From the NCBI RefSeq assembly GCF_000227295.1, contig NZ_JH165054.1, positions 1 through 61,099 on the forward strand: a stretch of DNA of 61,099 bases. The letters are read 5' to 3'. The DNA is from Cutibacterium avidum ATCC 25577 (GTDB lineage Bacteria; Actinomycetota; Actinomycetes; Propionibacteriales; Propionibacteriaceae). Of this stretch, positions 43,506-56,680 are shown piece by piece. The position numbers were made by a program, and so were the translations under genes. The notes under the pieces were generated by a model. The model was not told the origin of the DNA. It saw nothing but the letters and a program-made list of their open reading frames with translations, and searched no databases. The number at the start of each line of letters is the position of its first letter. Position 1 is the stretch's first letter.

Positions 43506-44066
43506 TCAGGACTTGTCCGAATCATCCTCGCTGACGAGCCCTTGCAGAGCCGCCCAACGTGGATCGATCCGATCCGGATGGTCATGGTCCGGGTCCTCGT
43601 TGAGGTTGGCGCCGCAGTCTGGACAAAGTCCCTCACAGTCGTCGCGGCACAGCGGGCTGAACGCCAGGTTCAGCACCACCGCAGCACGGACGACAGGGTC
43701 AAGGTCGATCGTTTCCTCGGCACTGACCCGACTAGCGTCCTCCTCAGCCTCCTTGTCCGGGTAGAAGTACAGCTCCTGGATGTCGAGGACGAGATCCTCC
43801 TCGATGGGATCCAGACAGCGAGAGCACTCCCCCTTCAGGGTGGCTTCGACGGCCCCGGTGACGAGAACTCCTTCACCCACTGATTCCAACCGAAGGTCGA
43901 GATCGAGAGGGGAGTCCTCGGGAACGCCGATCATGTCGACACCGAGATCCGCCGGAGCGGGCACCGTCCGTTGAACCCGGGTCATCTGACCCACCTGCCG
44001 ACGCAGCGAATGGGTCTCGATGACGAGATCCGAGTGTGCGTCGGGGTGGCGATGGGTGGTATTCAT
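43506..44066 (-). CDS. YceD/DUF177 family protein
   Basis: A 186-residue protein paired with rpmF across bacteria and thought to influence 23S rRNA or ribosome assembly. It has a [17 protein letters not shown] segment and cysteines [13 protein letters not shown] near the C terminus. In other actinobacteria coaD and rsmD lie directly upstream; here the sugar locus separates them. Confidence 0.93.
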
Positions 44067-44191: not shown

Positions 44192-44211
44192 GAACTAAAG
44201 CGTATTAGTTC
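44192..44211. promoter_or_regulatory. LacI-type operator upstream of the sugar-binding protein
   Basis: GAACTAAAGCGTATTAGTTC is a palindrome with 7-bp arms and a central CG, 70 bases before the binding-protein start. It shares its ACTAAA(G/C)CGTATTAGT core with the site before the GH38 gene. Confidence 0.75.
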
Positions 44212-44280
44212 GCTGGGATTCGACACCGACGCTGGAGTCGGATCCCACTGGGGACCCCCTTCAAGGAAGAAGTAGAGAAC

Positions 44281-45591
44281 ATGGCAAACCTCACCATCGG
44301 CCGACGTCAACTTCTCGGTGGTACGGCCGCACTGGCAACTGTCCTGGCTGCCAGCGCATGCGGCATGAGCGGATCGGGAGACAAGCCGTCGGGCCAGGCA
44401 TCCATCGACTCCTCCGCCAAGCTCGAGGGCAGCATCCAGTTCCAGACCTGGTCGCTCAAGAACGAGAAATTCACCCCGTACTTCGAGAAGCTCGTCAAGT
44501 CCTTCGAGAAGGAGCATCCCGGCACGACCATCAAGTGGATTGACCAGCCGGGTGAGGGCTACGAGGAGAAGGTCCAGCAGCAGGCCACCGCCGGTCAACT
44601 GCCCGACGTCGTCAACATGCCCCCGAACTTCGCATGGCAACTCCTCAAGGCCAACAAGGTCATGGACCTCAAGAAGGCCGATACCAAGACCATCGACACA
44701 TACACCAAGGGCGGCATCGATGCCTACACCTTTGATGGTCACGACGGGGTCTACGGCTACCCGTGGTACCTCGGCACCGACCTCAACTGGTGGAACACCC
44801 AGGCCTTCGAGGAGTACGGTCTCGACCCCAAGAAGCTGCCGACCACCCTTGACGAGCTCTACGAGCAGGCCATCACCATGGCTGAGAAGTCCGGCGGCAA
44901 GATGCCCCTCATCTCCACCGCTCCAACCCTCGGCGATCTCGCAGCCCAGGACGTCGAAGTCTTCAAGGACGGCAAATTCACCTTCAACACCGACAAGGCT
45001 GTCAAGATCATCGAGAAGTACGTCGAGCTCTATGCCAAGAAGGCCATGCCGCCGGAGGTGTTGCAGAACAACTACCTGGGCAACTCCAAGCTCTTCATCC
45101 AGGGCAAGGTTGCCTGGACCACCGGCTCGGCCTCCTTCCCGATCGATCTCAAGAAGGACGCCCCGAAGCTCGCTCCTCACGTCGCGATGACGAAGCGCAT
45201 CGGCGTTCCACCGCTTTTCGTCCAGGGTATTTGCGTCTCGAACGATTCCAAGAACCCGAACCTGGCGCTGGCCTTCGCCAAGTACGTCACCAACAACGCG
45301 AACCAAGTCGAGTTCGTCAAGCTGGCCCAGGGCTTCCTGCCCGGCACCAAGGAGGCCAACGAGAACCCGGAGTCCTTCACCTCGGTCATCGATGATCCAC
45401 AGATGAAGAAGGCTGCCGAGGCCCTCGCGGAGGAGATGAAGGATGCGCAGATCGGCGAGCCGATGGCTTACACCGACGCCATGAAGACCTACGTCGGCCA
45501 GCAGATTTCCTCGGCCATGCGTGGTGACATCAAGGCCAAGGACGCCCTCGATAACGCCGTCAAGTACTGCAACGACCACATCGCGAAGTGA
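44281..45591 (+). CDS. Sugar ABC transporter substrate-binding lipoprotein
   Basis: Extracellular solute-binding protein family 1, 436 residues. The signal has a twin-arginine motif (IGRRQLLGG) and a lipobox ending LAASAC with lipidated Cys27, so it is probably exported folded by Tat and anchored in the membrane. The mature part has the usual two-lobe pattern with PDVVNMP and YPWYLGTDLNWWN in the ligand cleft. It heads binding protein-permease-permease behind a LacI-type operator. The ligand may be a mannose-containing oligosaccharide, judged only from the neighbouring hydrolases. Confidence 0.93.
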   Translation: MANLTIGRRQLLGGTAALATVLAASACGMSGSGDKPSGQASIDSSAKLEGSIQFQTWSLKNEKFTPYFEKLVKSFEKEHPGTTIKWIDQPGEGYEEKVQQQATAGQLPDVVNMPPNFAWQLLKANKVMDLKKADTKTIDTYTKGGIDAYTFDGHDGVYGYPWYLGTDLNWWNTQAFEEYGLDPKKLPTTLDELYEQAITMAEKSGGKMPLISTAPTLGDLAAQDVEVFKDGKFTFNTDKAVKIIEKYVELYAKKAMPPEVLQNNYLGNSKLFIQGKVAWTTGSASFPIDLKKDAPKLAPHVAMTKRIGVPPLFVQGICVSNDSKNPNLALAFAKYVTNNANQVEFVKLAQGFLPGTKEANENPESFTSVIDDPQMKKAAEALAEEMKDAQIGEPMAYTDAMKTYVGQQISSAMRGDIKAKDALDNAVKYCNDHIAK

Positions 45592-45596
45592 TCCTC

Positions 45597-45627
45597 AGCC
45601 GGCCCCGCTCCCCGCGCGGGGCCGGCT
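45597..45627 (+). terminator. Stem-loop between binding-protein and permease genes
   Basis: AGCCGGCCCCGC and its complement form a 12-bp GC-rich stem with a 7-base loop, 5 bases after the binding-protein stop. Such hairpins often stabilise the binding-protein message and reduce read-through to permeases. No T tract. Confidence 0.6.
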
Positions 45628-45673
45628 CACCTCCCCGCTGACAACGCCCCTACCCCGCCAAGGATCTGCGCCC

Positions 45674-46630
45674 ATGAACTCCCACCGCTGGTACACCCCG
45701 TGGTTGTTGGTGGCTCCGGCAGTCGTGTGGACCGTCGTGTTCGCCCTCTACCCCTTCATCAACACGATCATTCTGTCCTTCACGAACACCCGGCCCCTCG
45801 TCGGCGGGGAGTTCATCGGCTTCGACAACTACGTCGAGCTGTGGCACGACGACATGTTCTGGAATGCCATGGCGACAACCTTCATCTACGTCATCGTGTG
45901 CATCCCACTGTTGACGATCCTGCCGTTGCTGTTGGCCTTGCTCGTCGAGAAGAAGATCCCCGGGATCTCGTTCTTCCGTACCGTGGCGTACTTCCCGGTG
46001 ATTGCCTCGGTCGTCGTCGTGGCCCTCATCTGGAGCTGGATGTTCGACTCCCGTGGTCTCATCAACCAGTCCCTGCAGTGGATGGGTGTCGCGAACAGCT
46101 CCATCCCCTTCCTCGTCGATCGGTGGAAGCTGTTGGGCTGCGCAATCCTGCTGACGGTGTGGAAGGGCCTCGGGTACTACATGATCGTCTACCTTGCGGC
46201 GCTCGGAAACGTCGACCATGACCTCCATGAAGCCGCCGCCCTCGATGGCGCAAGCAGCTTCCAGCGGTTCCGCAACGTCACCATCCCCGGGATCAGGCCG
46301 GCCATGGTTCTCATCATCGCCCTCATTGCGGTGTCCGGGATGAGGATCTTCTCCGAGCTCTACGTCCTCACGAATGGAACTGGTGGCCCAGGCGGTGAGG
46401 ACTCCAGCCTCGTCATGATCATCAAACAGGTCGGTACCGGTCTGTCCGGACAGCTCGGCTATGCGTCGGCCCTGTCAGTCGTGCTGTTCTTCCTCACCCT
46501 CATTCCGCTAGCAACCATCGGTTGGGCGAACAACAAGGACCTGCGGTCTGGCCGCAAGCCCAAGCAGGCTGGCCGTCGTGCCCGCCGGGCAGCAGCCGTC
46601 CAGGCCACCACGAAGGAGACGATGGCATGA
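45674..46630 (+). CDS. Sugar ABC transporter permease, MalF type
   Basis: A 318-residue inner-membrane permease with six hydrophobic segments and the ATPase-contact EAA loop (EAAALDGASSFQRFRNVTIP). ATG at 45674 begins MNSHRWYTPWLLVAPAVVW. It overlaps the next permease by 4 bases. No ATPase gene is in the cluster, so a shared MsiK-like ATPase elsewhere is likely. Confidence 0.93.
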   Translation: MNSHRWYTPWLLVAPAVVWTVVFALYPFINTIILSFTNTRPLVGGEFIGFDNYVELWHDDMFWNAMATTFIYVIVCIPLLTILPLLLALLVEKKIPGISFFRTVAYFPVIASVVVVALIWSWMFDSRGLINQSLQWMGVANSSIPFLVDRWKLLGCAILLTVWKGLGYYMIVYLAALGNVDHDLHEAAALDGASSFQRFRNVTIPGIRPAMVLIIALIAVSGMRIFSELYVLTNGTGGPGGEDSSLVMIIKQVGTGLSGQLGYASALSVVLFFLTLIPLATIGWANNKDLRSGRKPKQAGRRARRAAAVQATTKETMA

Positions 46631-47523
46631 GCACCTCCAGCCCAACTCGTCCTGTCAAGCAGAAGCCGTGGCGTAGCCGGCGAGCATTCGACCCAACCCG
46701 CCCTACCCTTGCCGGACTCATCGGGCGTTACATCCTGCTGATCTTCGTGGTCATCATCTCGGTCGGCCCCTTCCTGTGGCAGCTGTCCACCTCCCTCAAA
46801 GGCGTCAGCGAGGACGTTTACTCCTTCCCGCCCCATCTCATCCCCCAAGACTTCAGCGTCGACGCCTACCGTCGCGTTGCCCATGTCGTCCCGATCTTCA
46901 GTTACGCCTGGCATTCGGTCATCGTCGCCGCGGTCTGCGTCATCGGCAACGTCGTGCTGGCCTCCCTGGCAGGTTATGCGCTGACCTGCATGAAATTCCG
47001 CGGCAAGAAGGTCGTCATGGGCATCCTGCTGTCGGTCCTCCTACTTCCCGGTGAGGTCACGCTGACCAGCCAGTACCTCGTCATCAAGGGCATGGGCCTG
47101 GCGAACACCTTGGCCGGCGTCGCCATCCCCGGTGTCGTCGGTGCCATCAACGTGCTCCTCATGGCCACCGCCTGTCGGGCGGTCCCTCCGTCGGTCCTCG
47201 ATGCGGCGACCGTTGACGGAGCCAACACATGGGACAAGATCCGGCACGTGGTCTGGCCCAACATCAAGGGGATGGCCTCGGTGGTTGCGGTGTTCTCCTT
47301 CATCGGGGCCTGGGACGACTTCCTGTGGCCATTGGTCGTCCTCAACGATCCTGACAAGTACACCCTGACCGTCGGCATGCAGTACCTCAGTTCAACGATG
47401 TCGACCGACCCGCGTGAGGTCGCAGCCGGAACGATCATCGCCCTCATACCGATCATCGTCGTCTTCGCCTCGATGCAGAAGGTCTTCTTCCGTGGCGTGG
47501 AGAGCGGCGGCGTGAAAGGCTGA
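46627..47523 (+). CDS. Sugar ABC transporter permease, MalG type
   Basis: Partner permease of 298 residues with six hydrophobic segments (YILLIFVVIISVGPFLWQL first) and an EAA-like loop (LDAATVDGANTWDKIRHVVW) whose first residue differs. Coupled to the upstream permease by ATGA. Confidence 0.93.
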   Translation: MSTSSPTRPVKQKPWRSRRAFDPTRPTLAGLIGRYILLIFVVIISVGPFLWQLSTSLKGVSEDVYSFPPHLIPQDFSVDAYRRVAHVVPIFSYAWHSVIVAAVCVIGNVVLASLAGYALTCMKFRGKKVVMGILLSVLLLPGEVTLTSQYLVIKGMGLANTLAGVAIPGVVGAINVLLMATACRAVPPSVLDAATVDGANTWDKIRHVVWPNIKGMASVVAVFSFIGAWDDFLWPLVVLNDPDKYTLTVGMQYLSSTMSTDPREVAAGTIIALIPIIVVFASMQKVFFRGVESGGVKG

Positions 47524-47544
47524 GCGACCCACACCCAAATCAGG

Positions 47545-47577
47545 AGACGGTCGGAACCAGAAGGGTTCCGACCGTCT
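47545..47577. terminator. Terminator between permease and lacI-type genes
   Basis: AGACGGTCGGAACC and its complement form a 14-bp stem with a 5-base loop between convergent genes. It probably works in both directions. Confidence 0.8.
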
Positions 47578-47617
47578 TGTCGTTGGCCAATTCCAATGTC
47601 CCGGGGCAGGCAGACGT

Positions 47618-48625
47618 TCAGAGCTGCCCTGTGGAACCCCGGACGACGAGTTCAGGCGGCTGCTCGGTGATGTCCTCCACGTCCTGGCCATCAATGATGC
47701 TCATCAACATCGCGACGGCGTCCCTACCCAGAATTGACGGATCACGACGCAGAGCGGTAATTCCGGGCGGTATCACTCGACATGTCGGGGAATCCTCGAA
47801 GGACACGACCGAGACGTCAGCAGGAATCCGCAACCGGTGTTGCGTCAGGGAGGTGATGCCCCCCAGAGTCAATACTTCATTGTCATAGACGATGGCGGTG
47901 GGACGGTCAGGCCTGGAAAGAAGAGCGCTGGTCTCCTGAATTCCGGACTGCTCGGAGTAGTCGCTGGCCGCTGCCTCGATGACGACCACTCCGCGACTCT
48001 CCGCCTCCTGGGCGAAGACCTGGCGTCGGACCATGCTGTGCTCAAGGGTCGGGTCACCGCCGATATGGGCAATGCGACGATGCCCTTGGTCGGCCAAGTG
48101 GTTGACGATGCTCCGCGCAGCAGTGGCGTCATCGATATGAATGCCGGGCAACGGGGTGTCCTCCGTGGCTCCGACGACGGTGCACGGCATGTTGATCTCC
48201 GACATGAGGGACCACCGCGGGTCATTGCGGGCCGGGTCGACCAGGACGACACCGTCGACACGATGCTGAGCCCACCACTGTCGATGGACCTCACACTCCT
48301 CCTCAGGAGAGCCCACCAGCTGCAACACCAAGGCGATTCGAGCAGGAGTGAGAACCTCCTCCATCCCCGCGATGAGGTGCAGGAAGAACCCTTCCCCGGC
48401 GAAACTGCGATCGTCACGGGCGATGACGAGACCGACAGCACCGGCTCGATTGACCGACAACGCCTTCGCGGCGACGTTCGGACGCCATCCCATGTCCTTG
48501 GCCACAGCCTTGATACGAGCTCGGGTAGCCTCAGAAACTCCAGGCTTGTCATTGAGGGCAAAGGACACCGCGCCCGGCGACACACCGGCGACTCTGGCGA
48601 TGTCCTTGATCGTCGTCCTGCCCAT
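47618..48625 (-). CDS. LacI-family transcriptional regulator
   Basis: A 335-residue sugar-responsive repressor. The N-terminal helix-turn-helix and hinge is TTIKDIARVAGVSPGAVSFA; the rest is a periplasmic-binding-protein-like effector domain (GLVIARDD, VVSFEDSPTCRVIPPGITAL). ATG at 48625 gives the family N terminus. It is divergent from the GH31 gene and convergent with the permeases. Three CG-centred palindromes in the locus are its probable operators. The inducer is unknown. Confidence 0.93.
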   Translation of the reverse strand: MGRTTIKDIARVAGVSPGAVSFALNDKPGVSEATRARIKAVAKDMGWRPNVAAKALSVNRAGAVGLVIARDDRSFAGEGFFLHLIAGMEEVLTPARIALVLQLVGSPEEECEVHRQWWAQHRVDGVVLVDPARNDPRWSLMSEINMPCTVVGATEDTPLPGIHIDDATAARSIVNHLADQGHRRIAHIGGDPTLEHSMVRRQVFAQEAESRGVVVIEAAASDYSEQSGIQETSALLSRPDRPTAIVYDNEVLTLGGITSLTQHRLRIPADVSVVSFEDSPTCRVIPPGITALRRDPSILGRDAVAMLMSIIDGQDVEDITEQPPELVVRGSTGQL

Positions 48626-48745
48626 GAAGCCACGGTCCCTTCCGGAAGCATGAATGCCCTGATGGGCGCAGGTCACAAGGCATCCTCGCCCGGGAGCACA
48701 TGGCCTTCACCCGCGCAGCATCATCCTAGGGCCAAACCGGAGAAT

Positions 48746-48763
48746 GGGTAAAACGTTTCAGCG
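48746..48763. promoter_or_regulatory. Possible LacI-type operator in the lacI/GH31 divergent region
   Basis: GGGTAAAACGTTTCAGCG has an AAACGTTT dyad core centred on CG. It shares TAAA-N-CGT and the downstream AG with the two strong operators. It lies 121 bases upstream of the regulator start and 72 bases before the GH31 gene, so it could control both. Confidence 0.5.
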
Positions 48764-48834
48764 ATGTCTTCACGATGCCCTCCAGAACGGTTCATTGGCT
48801 ATTAGGGTGAGAGTCCCCAACGCTGGGAGACGTC

Positions 48835-51162
48835 ATGCCTCAGACAACCTGTCTTGCCACAGATCACTACCGCATAACCCTCATCACTGATCGACTCATT
48901 CGCTGTGAGTGGCGCGATGACCCTACGGAGCCCTTCGAGGACCGACCGACACAGGTGGTCGCGGACCGCACGCCCCACGAGGTCACCAACACCATTGATG
49001 AGGCGAATGGCCATATCATCATTCGAAACCGGTATTACGAGCTTCGCTACGACGGCATGGAGTTTTCCCCGGAAGGGCTGCACGCATCGATAACGAGCGT
49101 CGGCAATTACCACGCCGTGTGGCACTGGGGCGATGACCCACTCTCGCAAAACCCATTCGGAATCCCCACCAATCTGGGCGGGACCGCTCGCACTCTCGAC
49201 TGCGTCGACGGCCGTTGTGACATGGGCGCAGGTGTGGCGAGTGCGCAGGGATGGGCCGTCCTCGATGATTCTCATTCACTCGCACTGGAGGATGACGGAC
49301 CCACCCGATGGTCTCAACCGGTACGTCGGTACAACCCAGCTGATTCCGGTGGCAAGGATGTCTATCTCTTCCTCCACGGCCATGACTATGCTGCCGCAGC
49401 CGCAGATTTCTACCGCATCACCGGACCGCAACCGGTTATTCCGCGATGGGCCCTGGGCAACTGGTGGTCTCGCTACCACAATTACAGCGCCGACGAGTAC
49501 GAGACCCTCATGGATCGATTCGAGGCGGACGGAATCCCGCTGTCGGTGGCCGTCATTGACATGGACTGGCACCTCACCGACATCGACCCAGTTCTGGGAC
49601 ATGGCTGGACTGGATACACATGGAATCGAGAACTCTTCCCCGACCCTCGCGCCTTCCTTGCCAGCCTTCACCAGCGGGGATTACGGACCTGCCTCAATCT
49701 GCACCCGGCCGATGGCATCCGTCGTCATGAAGAGTGTTACCGACAGGTCGCCACTGACATGGGAGTCGACCCAGACTCAGGCGATCCCATCCCCTTTGAC
49801 ATTGCCGATCCACACTTTGCCACGGTGTACGTCGATGACGTCCTTCATCCCATGGAGGACGAGGGAGTCGATCTGTGGTGGGTGGACTGGCAGCAAGGAC
49901 AGACCTGCTCGGTACCCGGACTGGACCCACTGTGGATGCTCAACCACGTTCACCACATCGACTCGGGACGCCCCCGCCCGGATGGCCGTCGCCGCCCGCT
50001 GACCTTCTCGCGTTACGCGGGACCCGGGTCTCACCGCTACCCCATTGGTTTCTCGGGCGATTCCGTCATCTCCTGGGAAACTCTGGACTTCCAGCCCGAG
50101 TTCACGGCCACCGCCTCCAATATCGGTTACGGATGGTGGAGCCACGACATCGGTGGGCACATCTTCGGGTCCCGCGATGACGAGCTCATGGCTCGATGGG
50201 CGCAGTTCGGGGTGCTCTCTCCCATCAATCGACTGCACTCGACCAAGAACGAGTTCGGGTCCAAGGAGCCGTGGCATTACCGCACTGAAACCGAGATGGT
50301 CATGACTCAGTGCCTGCGGATGCGTCACCGTCTCATCCCGTATCTGCACAGCGAGAATCTGTCAGGCCATCGCGACCTGTGCCCTCTCCTCCGACCTACC
50401 TACTGGACTCACCCAGAGTGGGAGGAGTCCTATGTCGATCGCAATGAGTACTGGTTCGGCAGCCAGCTCTTGGTGCGGCCGGTCACCAGCAAACGCGACC
50501 CCGTCACGGGACTCGCGACCACGCGTACCTGGTTACCCCCTCTCGATGATGGTCTTCGGTGGGTCGACCTCCTCACTGGGCTCACCTACTCGCCACAGCG
50601 TTTCGTCACCATGTCTCGCACCATCGACGAGGTTCCTGTCCTTGCCAAACCTGGAACCATCATTCCGACTGCCACCGACCCGTTGGCCAGAGGAGACGTG
50701 ACGACCGATCTCACTCTGGTCGTCGTCCCGGGCGCTGCCGGCCACTTTGACTTGCTTGAGGACGACGACAGCCTGCGGACGACTCCTCTCGACCTCGACT
50801 CCGATGGACGGCTGCGAATCGGTCCATGCGAAGGTCCACACACAGCTGTGATGCGGCGATGGCGCGTGAGCGTCCACGCAGGAGGGCGTCCCGTCACGAT
50901 TGATCTCGGGCAGCATCGTCTGGACGAGGTCGTCGAAACCACCATCTCGGCCTCGTCCGACTGCGCCGATGACCTCATGACGAGAGCCATCACGCTCATC
51001 GATGCTGCTCAGATCGAATTCACCACGAAAACTCGCTTGGCAGACCTGTTGCGAAGCGGCCGTCCTCCCCTCGACCTCACCGCAATGCTGCTGGACGAGG
51101 ATGCGCCCGACTCTCTTCGCAACGCTCTGTTGGAGATCGTCTGGGCACTTTCTTCCGAGTGA
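48835..51162 (+). CDS. Glycoside hydrolase family 31 protein
   Basis: A 775-residue retaining alpha-glycosidase without a signal peptide, so probably intracellular. The TIM barrel carries the likely nucleophile Asp351 in DLWWVDWQQG and acid/base Asp409 in IGFSGDSVISW; the substrate region DMDWHLTDIDP and IGYGWWSHDIGGH follow the family. GH31 includes alpha-glucosidases, alpha-xylosidases and others, and I cannot tell which this is. GGGAG precedes ATG. The last 100 residues are less conserved and may be an added beta domain. Confidence 0.9.
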   Translation: MPQTTCLATDHYRITLITDRLIRCEWRDDPTEPFEDRPTQVVADRTPHEVTNTIDEANGHIIIRNRYYELRYDGMEFSPEGLHASITSVGNYHAVWHWGDDPLSQNPFGIPTNLGGTARTLDCVDGRCDMGAGVASAQGWAVLDDSHSLALEDDGPTRWSQPVRRYNPADSGGKDVYLFLHGHDYAAAAADFYRITGPQPVIPRWALGNWWSRYHNYSADEYETLMDRFEADGIPLSVAVIDMDWHLTDIDPVLGHGWTGYTWNRELFPDPRAFLASLHQRGLRTCLNLHPADGIRRHEECYRQVATDMGVDPDSGDPIPFDIADPHFATVYVDDVLHPMEDEGVDLWWVDWQQGQTCSVPGLDPLWMLNHVHHIDSGRPRPDGRRRPLTFSRYAGPGSHRYPIGFSGDSVISWETLDFQPEFTATASNIGYGWWSHDIGGHIFGSRDDELMARWAQFGVLSPINRLHSTKNEFGSKEPWHYRTETEMVMTQCLRMRHRLIPYLHSENLSGHRDLCPLLRPTYWTHPEWEESYVDRNEYWFGSQLLVRPVTSKRDPVTGLATTRTWLPPLDDGLRWVDLLTGLTYSPQRFVTMSRTIDEVPVLAKPGTIIPTATDPLARGDVTTDLTLVVVPGAAGHFDLLEDDDSLRTTPLDLDSDGRLRIGPCEGPHTAVMRRWRVSVHAGGRPVTIDLGQHRLDEVVETTISASSDCADDLMTRAITLIDAAQIEFTTKTRLADLLRSGRPPLDLTAMLLDEDAPDSLRNALLEIVWALSSE

Positions 51163-51163
51163 G

Positions 51164-51191
51164 TTGACTAAACCGTATTAGTCACTACACT
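51164..51191 (+). promoter_or_regulatory. Candidate promoter of the GH38-GH5 operon
   Basis: TTGACT (51164-51169) and TACACT (51186-51191) are 16 bases apart. The LacI-type operator spans the -35 box and spacer, which would allow direct occlusion of RNA polymerase. Confidence 0.6.
51165..51184. promoter_or_regulatory. LacI-type operator upstream of the GH38 gene
   Basis: TGACTAAACCGTATTAGTCA is a palindrome with 7-bp arms and a central CG. Its core matches the operator at 44192-44211 in 14 or more positions, which ties the transporter and the mannosidase genes to one regulator. Confidence 0.78.
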
Positions 51192-51241
51192 TCAATTCTG
51201 AAATTATCCGTTGTCAATGTCGCAACCGCCAGGGACTCCCC

Positions 51242-54200
51242 ATGCATGATCACGCCCCCATTCTTGACGGTCGGGTGCGCCGTCATCTCGCTGAGAAGAT
51301 TCGCCCCGCCGAGACCACCACGGTGTGCCCACTCGACGTCGAGTGGGCTCCCGTCACTGACACCACCGAGGGACCGAACAGTCGCCCCGGAGTCCGCGGA
51401 CAGGGAGAGCCCATCTCGATCAGCGAGGGGCTGTCGCTGAGCTATGAGCCGTTCCGGGTGGGAGACAAGTGGGGCCCGCCATGGGGAACGACCTGGCTCC
51501 ATCTCATGGCCACCGTTCCGCCGGAGCATCGCGACGACCATCTCGAGATGATCGTCGACCTCGGGGGCATCTGGGACTCCCCCGGGTTCCAGTCCGAGGG
51601 CCTCGTGGTGCGTCCGGACGGGTCGGTCATCAAGGCTCTCAACCCGCGAAACACGTGGATTCCCGTCGAGATCGACACGGAAGGTCACATCGACATCTAC
51701 GTCGAGGCTGCCTCCAACCCGATCCTGTTGGCCCAGCCTCCCTTCCAGCCAACCGAGGACGGGGACAAACTCACTGCCTCGACTGACGCCTACTACACCC
51801 TCAAGCGAGCTGATCTCGTCGTCGTCCACGACGAGGTCCGCGAGCTCATCGCTGACATCATAACTCTGTCCGGTTTGGCTTCCCAGCTACCGGAGGATTC
51901 CGAGCGCCGGTGGGAGATCCGTCGTGCTCTGGATCGTTCCATGGACAGAATCGATCTCTTCGACGTTGCCTCCACAGCATCAGCTGCTCGGGCCGAGTTG
52001 GCCCCAGTCCTCGCTCGTCCTGCCCACGACTCTGCCCAGACGATGACGGCCATCGGCCATGCCCACATTGACTCCGCCTGGTTGTGGCCGCTGCGCGAGA
52101 CCCGACGCAAGGTCGCTCGAACCATCTCCAACCAGCTCAATCTCATCGAGAATGACCCCACCCATCTCTTCGCCTTCCCTGCTGCTCAGCACTCGGCCTG
52201 GCTGGAGGAGGACCATCCTGACCTCTTCGCCAGATTGCAGAAGGCAGTCGCCGACGGCCGGATCATCCCGGTTGGAGGCATGTGGGTGGAGTCTGACGCC
52301 AACCTGCCTGGTGGGGAAGCGATGTGCCGTCAGCTGCTGTACGGGCAGCGGTACTTCATGAAGAAGTTCGGCCACCACTGCCCCGAGGTGTGGCTGCCTG
52401 ATTCCTTCGGCTACTCGGGAGCCCTACCGCAGCTGGCCAAGCTGGCCGGTGCCCAGTGGTTCCTGACCCAGAAGATCTCGTGGAACCAGGTCGACAAGTT
52501 TCCCCACCACTCCTTCTGGTGGGAGGGAATCGACGGCACCCGCATCTTCACCCATTTCCCGCCGGCTGACACCTACGGTTCTGACCTCTCGGCCCGCGAC
52601 CTCGAACACGCCAGGTCCAACTTCCAGGACAAGGGCCGCGCCAATTCCTCCTTGGTGCCCTTCGGCTATGGAGATGGCGGCGGTGGTCCCACCCGCGAAA
52701 TGCTCGCCCAGGCCCGTCGTGTCGCCGATCTTGACGGATCCCCCAAGCTGACCATCGAGCCTCCGGCCACGTTCTTCAGCCGCGCCGAGGCCGAGCACGA
52801 GGATCCGGGCGCCTGGGTTGGAGAGCTCTACCTCGAGCTGCATCGCGGCACGTTCACCAGCCAGTACGAGGTCAAGAAGGGCAACCGTCGCAATGAGCAC
52901 CTGCTGCGCGACGCCGAGCTGTGGTGCGCCACCGCAGCGGTACGCGGCCTGATGGACTACCCCGGTGAGTGGTTGGCCGAGATCTGGCGGACCATCTGTC
53001 TCTACCAGTTCCACGACATCCTGCCTGGATCGGCGATCGCGTGGGTGTATCGCGAGGTCGTCGCCGATCACCGGCGCATCTCTGACGAACTCACCGAGCT
53101 CATTCACCATGCCCAGGAGCTGCTAGCCGGAGAGGGTGACGAGCAGGTCGTCTTCGATTCTGCTCCTATGACTCGTCCGTGGGCTTCCACCGTGGCCATG
53201 GGTGCCGGAGTTGCTCCGGCAATTGCCCACGGGGTTCAGGCTGAGGATGCGGCTGACGGATTCGTCGTCGACAATGGCCTGCTGCGTCTTACCGTTGACG
53301 AGCACGGCCTCATCACCCACCTCGTCGACCCTGCTTCCGGTCGCGACGCCATCCCAGCTGGTCAGCGTGGCAATCTTCTCCAAATTCACCCTGACTTCCC
53401 GAACATGTGGGACGCGTGGGACATCGATCCCTTCTACGCCAACAACGTCACCGACCTGGATGATGGCAAGGCCACCATGTCCCGCAACGGTGATTCGGTG
53501 ACCATCAGCGTCACAAGGACGTTCGGGGATTCCCGCGCTACCCAGTCGCTGACCGTGAATCCGGGAGATCCGCGCGTCAAGGTACGCACCCATGTCGACT
53601 GGCACGAACGAGACAGTCTGCTCAAACTGGCCTGGCCGGTGGACGTCCACACCGATCACGCCGACTACGAGATCGAGATGGGTCACATCACCCGCCCCAC
53701 CCACACCAACACCTCGTGGGATGCCTTCCGCTTCGAGGTTCATGCCCATCGCTGGGTGTACATCTCCGAGCCCGGATTCGGCGTCGCCATCGCCAACTCC
53801 GGTACCTATGGGTGGAATGTGTCCCGCCATCCCAAGGACAACGGTGGCACGTGGTCGATGGCCCGCGCCTCCCTTCTCAAGGGAGCCCGCTACCCCGACC
53901 CGCGCGCTGACGAGGGAGAGCATGACTTCTTCCACACTCTGCACGTCGGAGCCGATCTCACCGATGCCGTGCGTGACGGGTATGCCGCCAACCTGTGCGT
54001 ACGTCGTCGTCAGGGATCGCCGGTCGATCCACTGGTCAGCGTCGAAGGCATTGCGGTCGAGGCCGTCAAATTGGCTGAGGATGGCTCTGGTGACGTCATC
54101 GTCCGGTTGTACGAGCCCTACGGGCGTCATGTTCACACCACTATGACGGTGGGCTTTGGCGCCACGTCCGCCGTCGAGTCCGACCTGCTCGAGGAACCCC

Positions 54201-54325
54201 TTGAGGGCAACCCGCACGCCCAGGCCGGTCCGTCAGTCATCACCGCTGACCTTGCTGACGACACGATCGGTCTGTCCATGCGTCCCTTCCAGGTTGCGAC
54301 CTTGAGGTTGGGACGCAACCGATGA
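51242..54325 (+). CDS. Alpha-mannosidase, glycoside hydrolase family 38
   Basis: A 1027-residue zinc-dependent alpha-mannosidase without a signal peptide. Domains: an N-terminal beta domain (about 1-260), the GH38 catalytic barrel (about 265-530) with metal ligands in GHAHIDSAWLWP and probable nucleophile Asp352 in MWVESDANLPGGE, a three-helix middle domain and C-terminal beta domains. Zinc-site HDILPGS lies near residue 595. It probably trims alpha-linked mannose from imported glycans. The stop overlaps the next gene by 4 bases. Confidence 0.94.
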   Translation: MHDHAPILDGRVRRHLAEKIRPAETTTVCPLDVEWAPVTDTTEGPNSRPGVRGQGEPISISEGLSLSYEPFRVGDKWGPPWGTTWLHLMATVPPEHRDDHLEMIVDLGGIWDSPGFQSEGLVVRPDGSVIKALNPRNTWIPVEIDTEGHIDIYVEAASNPILLAQPPFQPTEDGDKLTASTDAYYTLKRADLVVVHDEVRELIADIITLSGLASQLPEDSERRWEIRRALDRSMDRIDLFDVASTASAARAELAPVLARPAHDSAQTMTAIGHAHIDSAWLWPLRETRRKVARTISNQLNLIENDPTHLFAFPAAQHSAWLEEDHPDLFARLQKAVADGRIIPVGGMWVESDANLPGGEAMCRQLLYGQRYFMKKFGHHCPEVWLPDSFGYSGALPQLAKLAGAQWFLTQKISWNQVDKFPHHSFWWEGIDGTRIFTHFPPADTYGSDLSARDLEHARSNFQDKGRANSSLVPFGYGDGGGGPTREMLAQARRVADLDGSPKLTIEPPATFFSRAEAEHEDPGAWVGELYLELHRGTFTSQYEVKKGNRRNEHLLRDAELWCATAAVRGLMDYPGEWLAEIWRTICLYQFHDILPGSAIAWVYREVVADHRRISDELTELIHHAQELLAGEGDEQVVFDSAPMTRPWASTVAMGAGVAPAIAHGVQAEDAADGFVVDNGLLRLTVDEHGLITHLVDPASGRDAIPAGQRGNLLQIHPDFPNMWDAWDIDPFYANNVTDLDDGKATMSRNGDSVTISVTRTFGDSRATQSLTVNPGDPRVKVRTHVDWHERDSLLKLAWPVDVHTDHADYEIEMGHITRPTHTNTSWDAFRFEVHAHRWVYISEPGFGVAIANSGTYGWNVSRHPKDNGGTWSMARASLLKGARYPDPRADEGEHDFFHTLHVGADLTDAVRDGYAANLCVRRRQGSPVDPLVSVEGIAVEAVKLAEDGSGDVIVRLYEPYGRHVHTTMTVGFGATSAVESDLLEEPLEGNPHAQAGPSVITADLADDTIGLSMRPFQVATLRLGRNR

Positions 54326-55548
54326 GGATTGGCGTCAATCACACACCGTCGCAGGGATGGTTCCACAGCTGGCTTGACCTCGATATCGATGCGACACGAC
54401 GCGACTTCGAAGCAATTGCACGACTGGGCCTCGATCACGTACGGATCTTCCCACTGTGGCCGTTGTTGCAGCCCAATCGCGGTCTGGTGCGTCCCCGCGC
54501 CCTCGATGACGTCGTCTCCGTCGTGCGCGCAGCTGGCGAATTCGACCTTGAGGTCACCGTCGACGCCCTCAACGGACATCTGTCGAGTTATGATTTCCTG
54601 CCCTCCTGGGTGGTCACATGGCACGAGTCAAATCTCTTCACCGATCCGCTCGTCAAGGCTGGCCAGACCGAACTCATCAGCCAACTGGCAACACGCCTGC
54701 GGGAAGAGCCGAACGTCACCGGCATGACGGTGGGCAATGAGTTCCCGCAGTATGCGGCTCTGGCCCCGGGGCATCATCATCCGACGCGCAGCGGGTGCAC
54801 CATCGATGAGGCCCAGACGTGGTTGGAGACGATGCTCGGGACCATGCGGGACCAGTGGCCAGACGGACGATTCTGGTTCGGGTTCGACGACGACCTCTGG
54901 TTCGTTGACGATCATCCCTTCACCCCGCGTCACGCCGTCACCCTGGGCTCCTCGACGACCATCCATTCCTGGGTGTTCGCTCAGGTCGGACCGCACTTCG
55001 GGGAGGGACATCCCGCCCTGACGTGGTTCCCGCGCTATCTGCTCGAACTGGCCCGGGCCTGGAGCCCTGATCCCCACCGTCCACTCTGGCTGCAGGAAAT
55101 TGGTGCGCCTCGCAGCCACGTTCCCGACGACCGGGCAGCGGACTTCGTCACGTCGTCCTTGGCCTCGGTGGCCACCACCCCGAGTCTTGAGGCGGTGACA
55201 TGGTGGTGCTCCCACGACGTGTCAGACCAGCTGTTGGATTTCCCGAAGCTGGAGTATTCGCTCGGCCTGTTCACCAACGACGGCAAGCCAAAGCCGGAAG
55301 CCTTGGCCATGTCGGACATGCTGCCCGATCTGCACAACGCCCAGCCTCAGGAACAGACCGATGAGCCGCTGGAATTCAGCGCGGACTGGGACACCGGGGC
55401 GGGACGGTCGGTGTCCTTCCCCATGGGCGATCTCTTCGCCCGGTGGGTTGATGAAGCCATACAGACCGGACGAGCGCCCAAGCTCGTCCTTCATCCCACC
55501 CATGGGCTCACAGACCGAGAGGCCCTCACCAGTGCTCTAGCCCGCTGA
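54322..55548 (+). CDS. GH5-like glycoside hydrolase, possible beta-mannosidase
   Basis: A 408-residue TIM-barrel hydrolase of clan GH-A without a signal peptide. It begins MRIGVNHTPSQGWFHSW. The likely acid/base is Glu140 in MTVGNEFPQ and the nucleophile Glu259 in WLQEIGAP, spaced as in GH5. The pattern recalls subfamily GH5_18, whose Bifidobacterium members are beta-mannosidases acting on the Man-beta-1,4-GlcNAc core of N-glycans; that placement is from memory. It is coupled to the GH38 alpha-mannosidase by ATGA, which supports a mannoside substrate. Confidence 0.82.
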   Translation: MRIGVNHTPSQGWFHSWLDLDIDATRRDFEAIARLGLDHVRIFPLWPLLQPNRGLVRPRALDDVVSVVRAAGEFDLEVTVDALNGHLSSYDFLPSWVVTWHESNLFTDPLVKAGQTELISQLATRLREEPNVTGMTVGNEFPQYAALAPGHHHPTRSGCTIDEAQTWLETMLGTMRDQWPDGRFWFGFDDDLWFVDDHPFTPRHAVTLGSSTTIHSWVFAQVGPHFGEGHPALTWFPRYLLELARAWSPDPHRPLWLQEIGAPRSHVPDDRAADFVTSSLASVATTPSLEAVTWWCSHDVSDQLLDFPKLEYSLGLFTNDGKPKPEALAMSDMLPDLHNAQPQEQTDEPLEFSADWDTGAGRSVSFPMGDLFARWVDEAIQTGRAPKLVLHPTHGLTDREALTSALAR

Positions 55549-55613: not shown

Positions 55614-56090
55614 TCATGAGTGCGGGAACCTCTCTCGCAGCGCGGCATCGACGATGGCTGGCACGAACTCTGAGACGTTGCCCCCGTTGCATGCCGCCGA
55701 GCGAATCATGGAGGAGCTGATCGTCCCGAATTCGCGCCCAGCCGGCAGCAGGATCGTCTCAATCCCGCTCATGGCCTTGTTGAGGTGGGCCATCTGGAGC
55801 TCGTAGTCAAAATCCCCACCAAAGCGCAGGCCACGAATGATCGCGTCAGCTCCTTGCTCGGTGCAGAAGTCGACGAGCAACCCATCGACGAGGGCGACCT
55901 CGACACCCGGGATGTCAGCGACGGCATCCCGGACAAAGGTCACCCGCTCCTCCATGGAGAAAATGCCGTTCTTGGCCGAGTTGACCGCCACCCCGACGAC
56001 GACCTCGTCAACAAGCTCGGCGGCTCGCGTCACGATGTCGACGTGGCCGAGGGTGATGGGGTCAAAGGATCCTGAAAAAACTGCTTTCAC
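55614..56090 (-). CDS. coaD: Phosphopantetheine adenylyltransferase
   Basis: Fourth step of coenzyme A synthesis. 158 residues with the nucleotidyltransferase motif SFDPITLGHVDIV, RGLRFGGDFDYELQM and TISSSMIR. Overlaps rsmD by 4 bases. Confidence 0.96.
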   Translation of the reverse strand: MKAVFSGSFDPITLGHVDIVTRAAELVDEVVVGVAVNSAKNGIFSMEERVTFVRDAVADIPGVEVALVDGLLVDFCTEQGADAIIRGLRFGGDFDYELQMAHLNKAMSGIETILLPAGREFGTISSSMIRSAACNGGNVSEFVPAIVDAALRERFPHS

Positions 56091-56680
56091 TGCTGCTCCA
56101 TGGGCTCGCGGTTGCGCTGGGCGTAGTAGACGACGGTTTCACCGTAACGAGAGTTCCACGACTCAAACCCTTCCGGAAAGTGAGGGGTTCGGCTGCGGCG
56201 CGACCTCTCCACCACGACCAGTCCGTCATGGGCCAGGGCGTTCTGAATCGTGGCGGCGATGAGGCCATCCATGACGTCGTCGGCCAAGTCGTAGGGTGGG
56301 TCGAACCAGACGACGTCAAAGGTCTGCCGGTTGTCGGAGAGAAATGTCGAAACCGTCTGGGCGGCCACCTGAATCCGCAGGCGCGTGGTCCGGGCGTTCT
56401 CCGTCATGACATGACACGCTGAGCGGTCCCGGTCGACGGCAAGGACCGTCGATGCACCGCGACTGGCAGCCTCGAGGGCCACCGCTCCGGACCCAGCGAA
56501 CAGGTCGCAGAAGGCTTGCCCGGCAAGCTGGTCCTCGGGAGCCTCATCAGACGTTCCGTTCCAGGCTGCCAATGCAGAGAAGACAGCCTCGCGCACCCGA
56601 TCGGTCGTAGGACGTGTGAGACGTCCTGGCGGGGTGGCCAGACGCTGTCCGCCAGCACGACCCGAGATAATCCTGCTCAT
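56087..56680 (-). CDS. rsmD: 16S rRNA (guanine966-N2)-methyltransferase
   Basis: SAM-dependent methylase of 197 residues. SAM motif FCDLFAGSGAVALEAASRGA; catalytic DPPY in VVWFDPPYDLADDV; N terminus RIISGRAGGQRLATPPG is typical. Upstream member of the rsmD-coaD pair. Confidence 0.95.
   Translation of the reverse strand: MSRIISGRAGGQRLATPPGRLTRPTTDRVREAVFSALAAWNGTSDEAPEDQLAGQAFCDLFAGSGAVALEAASRGASTVLAVDRDRSACHVMTENARTTRLRIQVAAQTVSTFLSDNRQTFDVVWFDPPYDLADDVMDGLIAATIQNALAHDGLVVVERSRRSRTPHFPEGFESWNSRYGETVVYYAQRNREPMEQQ

What the first reader, a model, noticed from the sequence alone, without database searches (positions are those of the whole stretch)
44192..55548. Self-contained mannoside (possibly N-glycan) import and breakdown locus inserted into a core operon
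Seen: Tat-type binding lipoprotein, two permeases, LacI regulator, cytoplasmic GH31, GH38 and a GH5-like hydrolase lie together between yceD and coaD, which are neighbours in other actinobacteria. Known: GH38 enzymes are alpha-mannosidases, and Bifidobacterium GH5_18 enzymes cut the beta-mannosyl link of the N-glycan core. Inferred: the locus imports mannose-rich oligosaccharides, such as those freed from host glycoproteins, and removes alpha- then beta-linked mannose inside the cell. The role of GH31 is open.
Basis: partly seen in the sequence, partly recalled or inferred. Interest (0 to 1): 0.78.

Follow-up and report, generated by a model that had tools for sequence, protein, structure and literature searches.

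The report
N-glycan scavenging locus, extra glucosidase
A gene cluster in a Cutibacterium (relatives of the acne bacterium) imports mannose-rich sugar chains of the kind cut from glycoproteins and digests them inside the cell; its core was already described in C. acnes, but a shared DNA switch that links it to secreted glycan-cutting enzymes in sister species, and an extra glucosidase that most sister species have lost, appear to be new.

Summary
In detail: a Tat lipoprotein, two permeases, LacI, GH31, GH38 and GH5 lie at 44281-55548 between yceD and coaD, close neighbours in most family members examined. The N-glycan reading is right in the main, but its core is in print: the GH5 protein is the ortholog of C. 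acnes CaMan5_18, shown to cut Man-beta-1,4-GlcNAc (PMC6160142).

Additions: (1) A palindrome, ACTAAASCGTATTAGT, lies before the importer and before GH38-GH5_18 and, within two mismatches, nowhere else in this genome. In nine genus genomes 23 of 25 such sites lie before these genes or before secreted endo-beta-N-acetylglucosaminidases (EndoH-like GH18, GH85). Six of seven distant Actinomycetes loci examined carry the module together with an endoglycosidase. (2) The window's genome has neither GH18 nor GH85, so 'self-contained' fails; it probably scavenges glycans released by others. (3) GH31 is a GH31_u1-type alpha-1,3-glucosidase, intact in 2 of 9 genus genomes and broken, remnant or absent in the rest. 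It may remove glucose from monoglucosylated high-mannose glycans; this is inferred, and GH31_u1 elsewhere is not linked to N-glycan genes.

Regulator binding, ligand and enzyme activities were not tested.

The parts
43506..44066 (-). yceD (DUF177), left flank of the insertion
44194..44209 (.). O1, LacI-type operator ACTAAAGCGTATTAGT before the importer genes
44281..45591 (+). Tat-type lipoprotein, sugar-binding protein of an ABC importer
   Evidence: 37-47% identical homologs in 6 of 7 distant GH5_18 loci
45674..46630 (+). ABC importer permease 1 (start chosen at ATG 45674)
46627..47523 (+). ABC importer permease 2 (start chosen at ATG 46627)
47618..48625 (-). LacI-family regulator, proposed repressor of the regulon (start chosen at 48625)
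48747..48762 (.). O2, weaker operator-like palindrome GGTAAAACGTTTCAGC between lacI and GH31
   Evidence: two mismatches to RCTAAANCGNTTTAGY; a like site in G001, G002, G004 and G006, two of which have no GH31 there
48835..51162 (+). GH31 (GH31_u1 type), predicted cytoplasmic alpha-1,3-glucosidase
51167..51182 (.). O3, operator ACTAAACCGTATTAGT before GH38-GH5_18, between a -35-like TTGACT and a -10-like TACACT
   Evidence: the promoter scan as a whole is no better than its shuffles
51242..54325 (+). GH38 alpha-mannosidase, cytoplasmic
54322..55548 (+). GH5_18 exo-beta-1,4-mannosidase, ortholog of CaMan5_18 (PDB 6gvb)
55614..56090 (-). coaD, right flank of the insertion
   Evidence: name by recall
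56087..56680 (-). rsmD, next core gene
   Evidence: name by recall

Best explanation
The locus is the import-and-digest half of a LacI-controlled N-glycan regulon. Outside the cell an endo-beta-N-acetylglucosaminidase releases Man(n)GlcNAc from glycoproteins; the Tat lipoprotein and two permeases, with an ATPase encoded elsewhere, import it; cytoplasmic GH38 removes alpha-linked mannose; GH5_18 splits the remaining Man-beta-1,4-GlcNAc. LacI represses from palindromic operators before the importer and before GH38-GH5_18 until an imported sugar relieves it. In sister species the same operator lies before the secreted endoglycosidase; the window's species lacks that enzyme and most likely scavenges glycans freed by other organisms. 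GH31 most likely removes an alpha-1,3-linked glucose that would block the mannosidases, as on monoglucosylated high-mannose glycans. Shown here: gene content, homology, operator conservation, absence of GH18 and GH85 matches. Inferred: ligand, repression, order of steps, location of the enzymes (signal peptides read by eye), GH31 substrate.
For: GH5_18: 87% identical to the G001 protein, whose letters equal the 6gvb chain over the 407 aligned residues; 9 of 9 active-site residues named in the paper are the same; the C. acnes enzyme acts on Man-beta-1,4-GlcNAc (abstract). Operator, up to 2 mismatches: 2 hits in the whole own genome, both in this locus; 25 hits in 8 of the 9 genus genomes, of which 8 lie before the binding protein, 7 before GH38, 4 before an EndoH-like GH18, 4 before a GH85 and 2 elsewhere; none in G003, which lacks the locus; the reversed pattern hits once in the nine (places read). 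With the symmetric consensus RCTAAANCGNTTTAGY, written after seeing these sites, all 7 GH85 and all 4 EndoH-like genes found in the genus have a site with one mismatch, roughly 33-68 bp before the start of the match, and GH38 of G008 has one too. EndoH-like: PDB EndoH at 1.2e-76; GH85: PF03644 at 1.5e-47. Distant Actinomycetes: of 7 GH5_18 loci fetched (7 of 34 non-genus carriers, picked by hand), 6 hold the binding protein, both permeases and GH38, 5 of these also LacI, and the same 6 hold an endoglycosidase: GH85 in L097, L099, L103 (PF03644 6e-68 or better), EndoH-like GH18 in L100 and L101, EndoS-type GH18 in L102. Palindrome at 2 mismatches: 13 sites in these 7 loci (140 kb), 0 in 13 GH31_u1 control loci (259 kb), 0 in 260 kb of the own genome outside the locus; six other palindromes gave 0 or 1 (one of them lacks the degenerate ends).
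Against: No binding, expression or enzyme data. No GH18 or GH85 match in this genome, so the species may use another mannoside. Regulator and palindrome are paired by neighbourhood and conservation only. PNGase and the transporter ATPase were not searched for. L098 has GH5_18 without the rest. Two of 25 operator hits have no such gene beside them (G004:C2:253801, G007:C4:431520); neither fits the symmetric consensus at 2 mismatches. At 3 mismatches the counts in L097, L099, L100 and L103, taken singly, do not exceed the highest of 20 mononucleotide shuffles. GH31 is intact in only 2 of the 8 locus-bearing genomes, so the pathway can do without it.
Confidence: 0.8

Rival explanations
1. GH31 is not part of N-glycan digestion: it is a glucosidase for nigerose or alpha-1,3-glucan oligosaccharides that was captured into the locus and uses the same or another importer.
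For: GH31_u1 elsewhere is not linked to N-glycan genes: GH5_18 beside it in 0 of 80 named loci (the best 80 of at least 589; 28 of the 80 are shorter than 20 kb) and in 0 of 13 unnamed non-genus loci; GH38 in 2 of 80 and 1 of 13. Of 394 Actinomycetes genomes 36 have GH5_18 (E 1e-30) and 16 this GH31 (E 1e-80), 3 have both: two of this genus and G233, there on different contigs. The authors of the characterised L. lactis enzyme argue against N-glycan as its substrate and name mutan and fungal glucan. GH31 lies at different places in G000 and G008.
Against: In both genomes where it is intact it lies inside this locus; an operator-like site lies before it in the window; monoglucosylated N-glycans are known from mature material (GlcMan7GlcNAc2 and GlcMan8GlcNAc2 from hen egg yolk, passages of PMC10913092).
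Confidence: 0.45
2. The locus in this species serves a different mannoside, for example fungal mannan fragments or plant beta-mannosides, and N-glycan use is the sister species' trait only.
For: No GH18 or GH85 match in this genome; the place that GH85 has in G006 beside a recombinase gene is empty here (about 0.3 kb between the neighbours, L239:11358-11656), and no EndoH-like match lies beside aceE.
Against: Importer, regulator, GH38 and GH5_18 are 80-95% identical to those of the sister species that have the endoglycosidases, 63-85% in G008; the C. acnes ortholog of GH5_18 cuts the N-glycan core bond, and a review lists GH5_18 among the families that do so (passages).
Confidence: 0.15
3. The LacI protein encoded in the locus is not the factor that binds the palindrome; another LacI-family protein does.
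For: The palindrome has a general LacI-family shape with a central CG (recalled); no binding was tested.
Against: The palindrome is missing from G003, where the locus with its regulator is missing from this site (the rest of G003 was not searched for the regulator). In five distant loci a palindrome lies in the LacI-SBP or LacI-GH38 spacer (L099-L103).
Confidence: 0.1

Closest known systems
C. acnes proposed N-glycan degradation locus 1 (Reichenbach et al. 2018, PMC6160142; abstract, passages and section 19 seen)
   Same: Same GH38 + GH5_18 pair with ABC importer and a regulator; in G001, C. acnes by identity of its GH5_18 with 6gvb, at the same yceD/coaD site
   Different: Strain 266 adds GH20 and GH18; G001 also has a second transporter there and only GH31 remnants. 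The window has an intact GH31 and none of those. The words GH31, LacI and operator do not occur in the paper's main text
GH31_u1 alpha-1,3-glucosidase of Lactococcus lactis (PDB 7wj9, PMC9061262; abstract and sections 4, 8, 9, 11 seen)
   Same: E 1.6e-175, next GH31 1.2e-38; Y99, H280, D341, Q343, F391, D394 and H427 identical
   Different: M122 is Cys, S455 is Thr, position 429 differs (the paper calls it Asn, my mapping with an offset of 20 finds Gln in the chain and Phe here); other subsite -1 residues were not mapped. The neighbourhood is an N-glycan locus, not a nigero-oligosaccharide cluster
Bifidobacterium longum high-mannose N-glycan operon (Cordeiro et al. 2022, not read; known through passages of the review PMC10154615)
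   Same: GH38 mannosidases after endoglycosidase release; GH5_18 for the core bond
   Different: Three GH38 and a GH125 in one operon; here one GH38 in the locus and a GH38/GH125/GH20 set at a second locus (L020), and no endoglycosidase of GH18 or GH85
Streptococcus pneumoniae N-glycan system (PMC5215778, search listing only; content recalled)
   Same: Endoglycosidase, ABC import, GH38
   Different: Regulation and core enzymes differ; not compared here
NagR regulon of Bifidobacterium infantis for milk oligosaccharides (PMC9599254, search listing only)
   Same: A sugar regulon that ties import to glycan digestion
   Different: Other regulator name and substrates by its title and abstract start; not compared here

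Membership tests
GH5_18 exo-beta-1,4-mannosidase | Full-length similarity to a characterised GH5_18 enzyme | tested here: met
   6gvb E 2.8e-254, residues 1-407; next hits ScGH5_18, BlGH5_18, BlMan5B
GH5_18 exo-beta-1,4-mannosidase | Catalytic Glu140/Glu259 and pocket residues | tested here: met
   9 of 9 residues checked identical (residues)
GH5_18 exo-beta-1,4-mannosidase | Hydrolysis of Man-beta-1,4-GlcNAc | not testable with these tools
   Shown for the C. acnes ortholog only (abstract)
C. acnes N-glycan locus 1 | GH38-GH5_18 pair with ABC importer | tested here: met
C. acnes N-glycan locus 1 | GH20 and GH18 in the locus (strain 266 form) | tested here: not met
   GH5_18 ends at 55548, coaD begins at 55614, no gene between; no GH18 match in the genome. 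The paper says these two genes vary among strains
GH31_u1 alpha-1,3-glucosidase | Closest characterised protein is GH31_u1 | tested here: met
   7wj9 E 1.6e-175 against 1.2e-38 for the next distinct GH31; no tree of all GH31 subfamilies was made
GH31_u1 alpha-1,3-glucosidase | Catalytic and substrate-contact residues | tested here: met
   7 of 10 mapped positions identical, both catalytic Asp among them; 122, 429 and 455 differ
GH31_u1 alpha-1,3-glucosidase | Activity on Glc-alpha-1,3 bonds | not testable with these tools
   needs an enzyme assay
Complete N-glycan utilisation system (release, import, digestion) | Own endo-beta-N-acetylglucosaminidase (GH18 or GH85) | tested here: not met
   0 matches for PF00704, PF03644 and for both sister-species enzymes in the own genome
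Complete N-glycan utilisation system (release, import, digestion) | PNGase as another way of release | not tested
LacI-controlled N-glycan regulon | Operator before importer and digestion genes, rare elsewhere | tested here: met
   2 of 2 genome-wide hits are here; 2 hits in the window at 3 mismatches against 0.07 in shuffles
LacI-controlled N-glycan regulon | Binding and derepression | not testable with these tools
   needs EMSA and expression data

The most novel reading that the evidence does not exclude
Cutibacterium and distant Actinomycetes share an ancient LacI-operator N-glycan regulon; the window's species has become a scavenger that kept importer and digestion but not the secreted endoglycosidase, and kept a bacterial counterpart of glucosidase II (GH31_u1), so that it can also open monoglucosylated high-mannose glycans that relatives without GH31 cannot.
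Probability: 0.3. Interest if true: 0.62.

Novelty: new variant of a known kind. Interest (0 to 1): 0.5.

Why it matters
The shared operator ties the cytoplasmic enzymes to secreted endoglycosidases, which turns a proposed C. acnes pathway into a regulon with defined members that can be tested by EMSA and RNA-seq. It offers a motif by which N-glycan systems in Actinomycetes can be found, and it suggests a division of labour: species with the endoglycosidase release glycans, a species without it may take them up. A GH31 acting on glucosylated N-glycans would be a bacterial step in this pathway that I did not find described.

Tried and rejected
Rejected: placing GH31 in N-glycan digestion by neighbourhood alone, since GH31_u1 in 93 other loci shows GH38 in 3 and GH5_18 in none (13 of 14 unnamed non-genus carriers were used, G116 on a 3.6-kb contig was left out). 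Rejected: that the GH5 is a generic cellulase or mannanase. Rejected: chance for the palindrome.

PMC7309569 gave nothing on natural monoglucosylated glycans. Gain or loss: in a three-gene tree (coaD, rsmD, yceD) G003 (empty site) groups with G008 (has the locus) at 99, so G003 may have lost the locus or it came more than once; not settled. dN/dS by a simple count: GH31 G000-G008 0.22 (GH38 0.17, GH5_18 0.21); pieces of the broken G007 copy 0.08 and 0.10 (GH38 0.08, GH5_18 0.07); synonymous sites are near saturation.

Full report
What is there. Between yceD (43506-44066, minus) and coaD (55614-56090, minus) lie, on the plus strand unless noted, a Tat-type lipoprotein, two ABC permeases, a LacI regulator (minus), GH31, GH38 and a GH5-like hydrolase. 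The locus holds no ATPase gene. coaD lies within 1.5 kb of yceD in 21 of 25 non-genus family loci examined, and in G003 of the same genus the two are about 165 bp apart with nothing of the locus between. The other 8 of 9 genus genomes hold the locus at this place, G005 across a contig break.

Prior knowledge. The GH5-like protein is the ortholog of C. acnes CaMan5_18 (PDB 6gvb), for which activity on Man-beta-1,4-GlcNAc was shown and an N-glycan locus with GH38 and an ABC importer proposed (PMC6160142: abstract, passages and section 19 seen). G001 is C. acnes: its GH5_18 carries the letters of the 6gvb chain, and it has a GH20 and a GH18 between GH5_18 and coaD, as the paper tells for strain 266. 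The paper's main text holds no GH31, LacI or operator; it names a second GH18 (AEE72208) as a possible release enzyme and mentions GH85 once.

A shared operator. Comparing the sequences before the importer and before GH38 in the genus showed one palindrome, ACTAAASCGTATTAGT. In the whole own genome it occurs, with up to two mismatches, only at 44194 and 51167. O3 at 51167 lies between a -35-like and a -10-like hexamer (the scan finds one promoter-like site where shuffles give 2.3, so this is weak by itself). In the nine genus genomes there are 25 such sites: 8 before the binding protein, 7 before GH38, 4 before an EndoH-like GH18, 4 before a GH85 and 2 elsewhere; G003, without the locus, has none; the reversed pattern hits once. 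Both kinds of endoglycosidase begin with what reads by eye as a signal peptide. With the symmetric consensus RCTAAANCGNTTTAGY, which I wrote after seeing these sites, the other three GH85 genes (G001, G005, G008) also carry a site with one mismatch at about the same distance, so 7 of 7 GH85 and 4 of 4 EndoH-like genes have one. The G001 GH85 is broken: three pieces with stops.

Distant relatives. Of 394 Actinomycetes genomes 36 have a GH5_18 at E 1e-30. I fetched 20 kb around 7 of the 34 outside the genus, picked by hand across families. Six hold GH38, the binding protein and both permeases; five of these also hold a LacI of 42-46% identity; one (L098) holds GH5_18 alone. The same six hold an endoglycosidase: GH85 in L097, L099 and L103 (tblastn, Pfam), EndoH-like GH18 in L100 and L101, EndoS-type GH18 in L102. 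L100 and L101 also hold GH92. Palindromes at two mismatches: 13 in these seven loci, none in 13 GH31_u1 control loci, none in 260 kb of the own genome outside the locus; six other palindromes gave 0 or 1. At one mismatch the sites are in L100, L101 and L102 only; at three mismatches the counts of L097, L099, L100 and L103, taken singly, do not exceed the highest of 20 shuffles. So the operator is well supported in the genus and in L101 and L102, and suggestive in the others.

What is missing in the window's genome. PF00704 and PF03644 find nothing (both models do recognise the sister-species proteins), nor do the sister-species enzymes as queries. The place that GH85 has in G006 beside a recombinase gene is empty here (about 0.3 kb), and beside aceE no EndoH-like match is found. 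So 7 of 8 locus-bearing genomes have at least one intact endoglycosidase gene of these two kinds and the window's own is the exception. A second locus of the own genome (L020: GH4, GH38, phosphodiesterase-like, HAD, GH125, GH20, PfkB, ABC genes, DeoR) resembles the paper's 'locus 2' and could supply GH125 and GH20.

GH31. Its closest characterised relative is the GH31_u1 alpha-1,3-glucosidase of L. lactis (PMC9061262: abstract and sections 4, 8, 9, 11 seen). Seven of ten mapped active-site positions are identical, both catalytic Asp among them. In the genus it is intact in G000 and, at another place, in G008; broken in G007 (stops inside, a middle part missing); remnants are left in G001, G004 and G005; none is found at the locus in G002 and G006, and G003 has no match at all. 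Most genus genomes, the own one included (C1:1114646), also hold another GH31 of about 30% identity, which is not this gene. Pairwise dN/dS of GH31 is as low as that of its neighbours. Outside the genus this GH31 lies in other contexts: GH5_18 in 0 of 80 named (best 80 of at least 589; 28 shorter than 20 kb) and 0 of 13 unnamed loci, GH38 in 2 and 1. If it cleaves Glc-alpha-1,3 bonds as its relative does, its place in an N-glycan pathway would be the glucose of glucosylated high-mannose glycans; such glycans are reported from hen egg yolk (PMC10913092, passages). The L. lactis authors think N-glycans unlikely for their enzyme. I give the N-glycan role about even odds.

Print check. Searches, judged by their listings, show no paper on an operator or LacI regulon for N-glycan use in Cutibacterium, or on this GH31; the library holds open-licence papers only.

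Verdict. Observation confirmed; interpretation right in the main, already known in its core, wrong on 'self-contained'. The operator-defined regulon, the missing endoglycosidase and the decaying GH31 are the additions.

Noticed in passing
L020:4871-19150 (G000:C1 about 1194870-1209150): Second GH38 locus of the own genome with GH4, GH125, GH20, phosphodiesterase-like, HAD and PfkB genes, DeoR regulator and ABC importer genes; resembles 'locus 2' of PMC6160142.
   Followed up: partly
L014:3486-6535: In G007 about 4 kb lies between permease 2 and lacI, with an ABC-ATPase-like protein (by eye) and a 787-aa protein without Pfam match.
   Followed up: partly
L012:16796: In C. acnes (G001) an operator-like site GGTAAACCGTTTCAGT (two mismatches) lies about 45 bp before the GH20 gene, so GH20 may belong to the regulon.
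   Followed up: no
G004:C2:253801 and G007:C4:431520: Two operator hits (two mismatches each) with no N-glycan gene found beside them; neither fits the symmetric consensus at two mismatches.
   Followed up: partly
L100:15277-18399 and L101:13214-17236: GH92 alpha-mannosidases beside the same module in distant Actinomycetes; in L100 a palindrome lies just before the gene.
   Followed up: partly
L251 (G001:C1:1919000-1927000): The GH85 endoglycosidase gene of this C. acnes genome is in three pieces with stops, while an operator-like site before it is still present.
   Followed up: no
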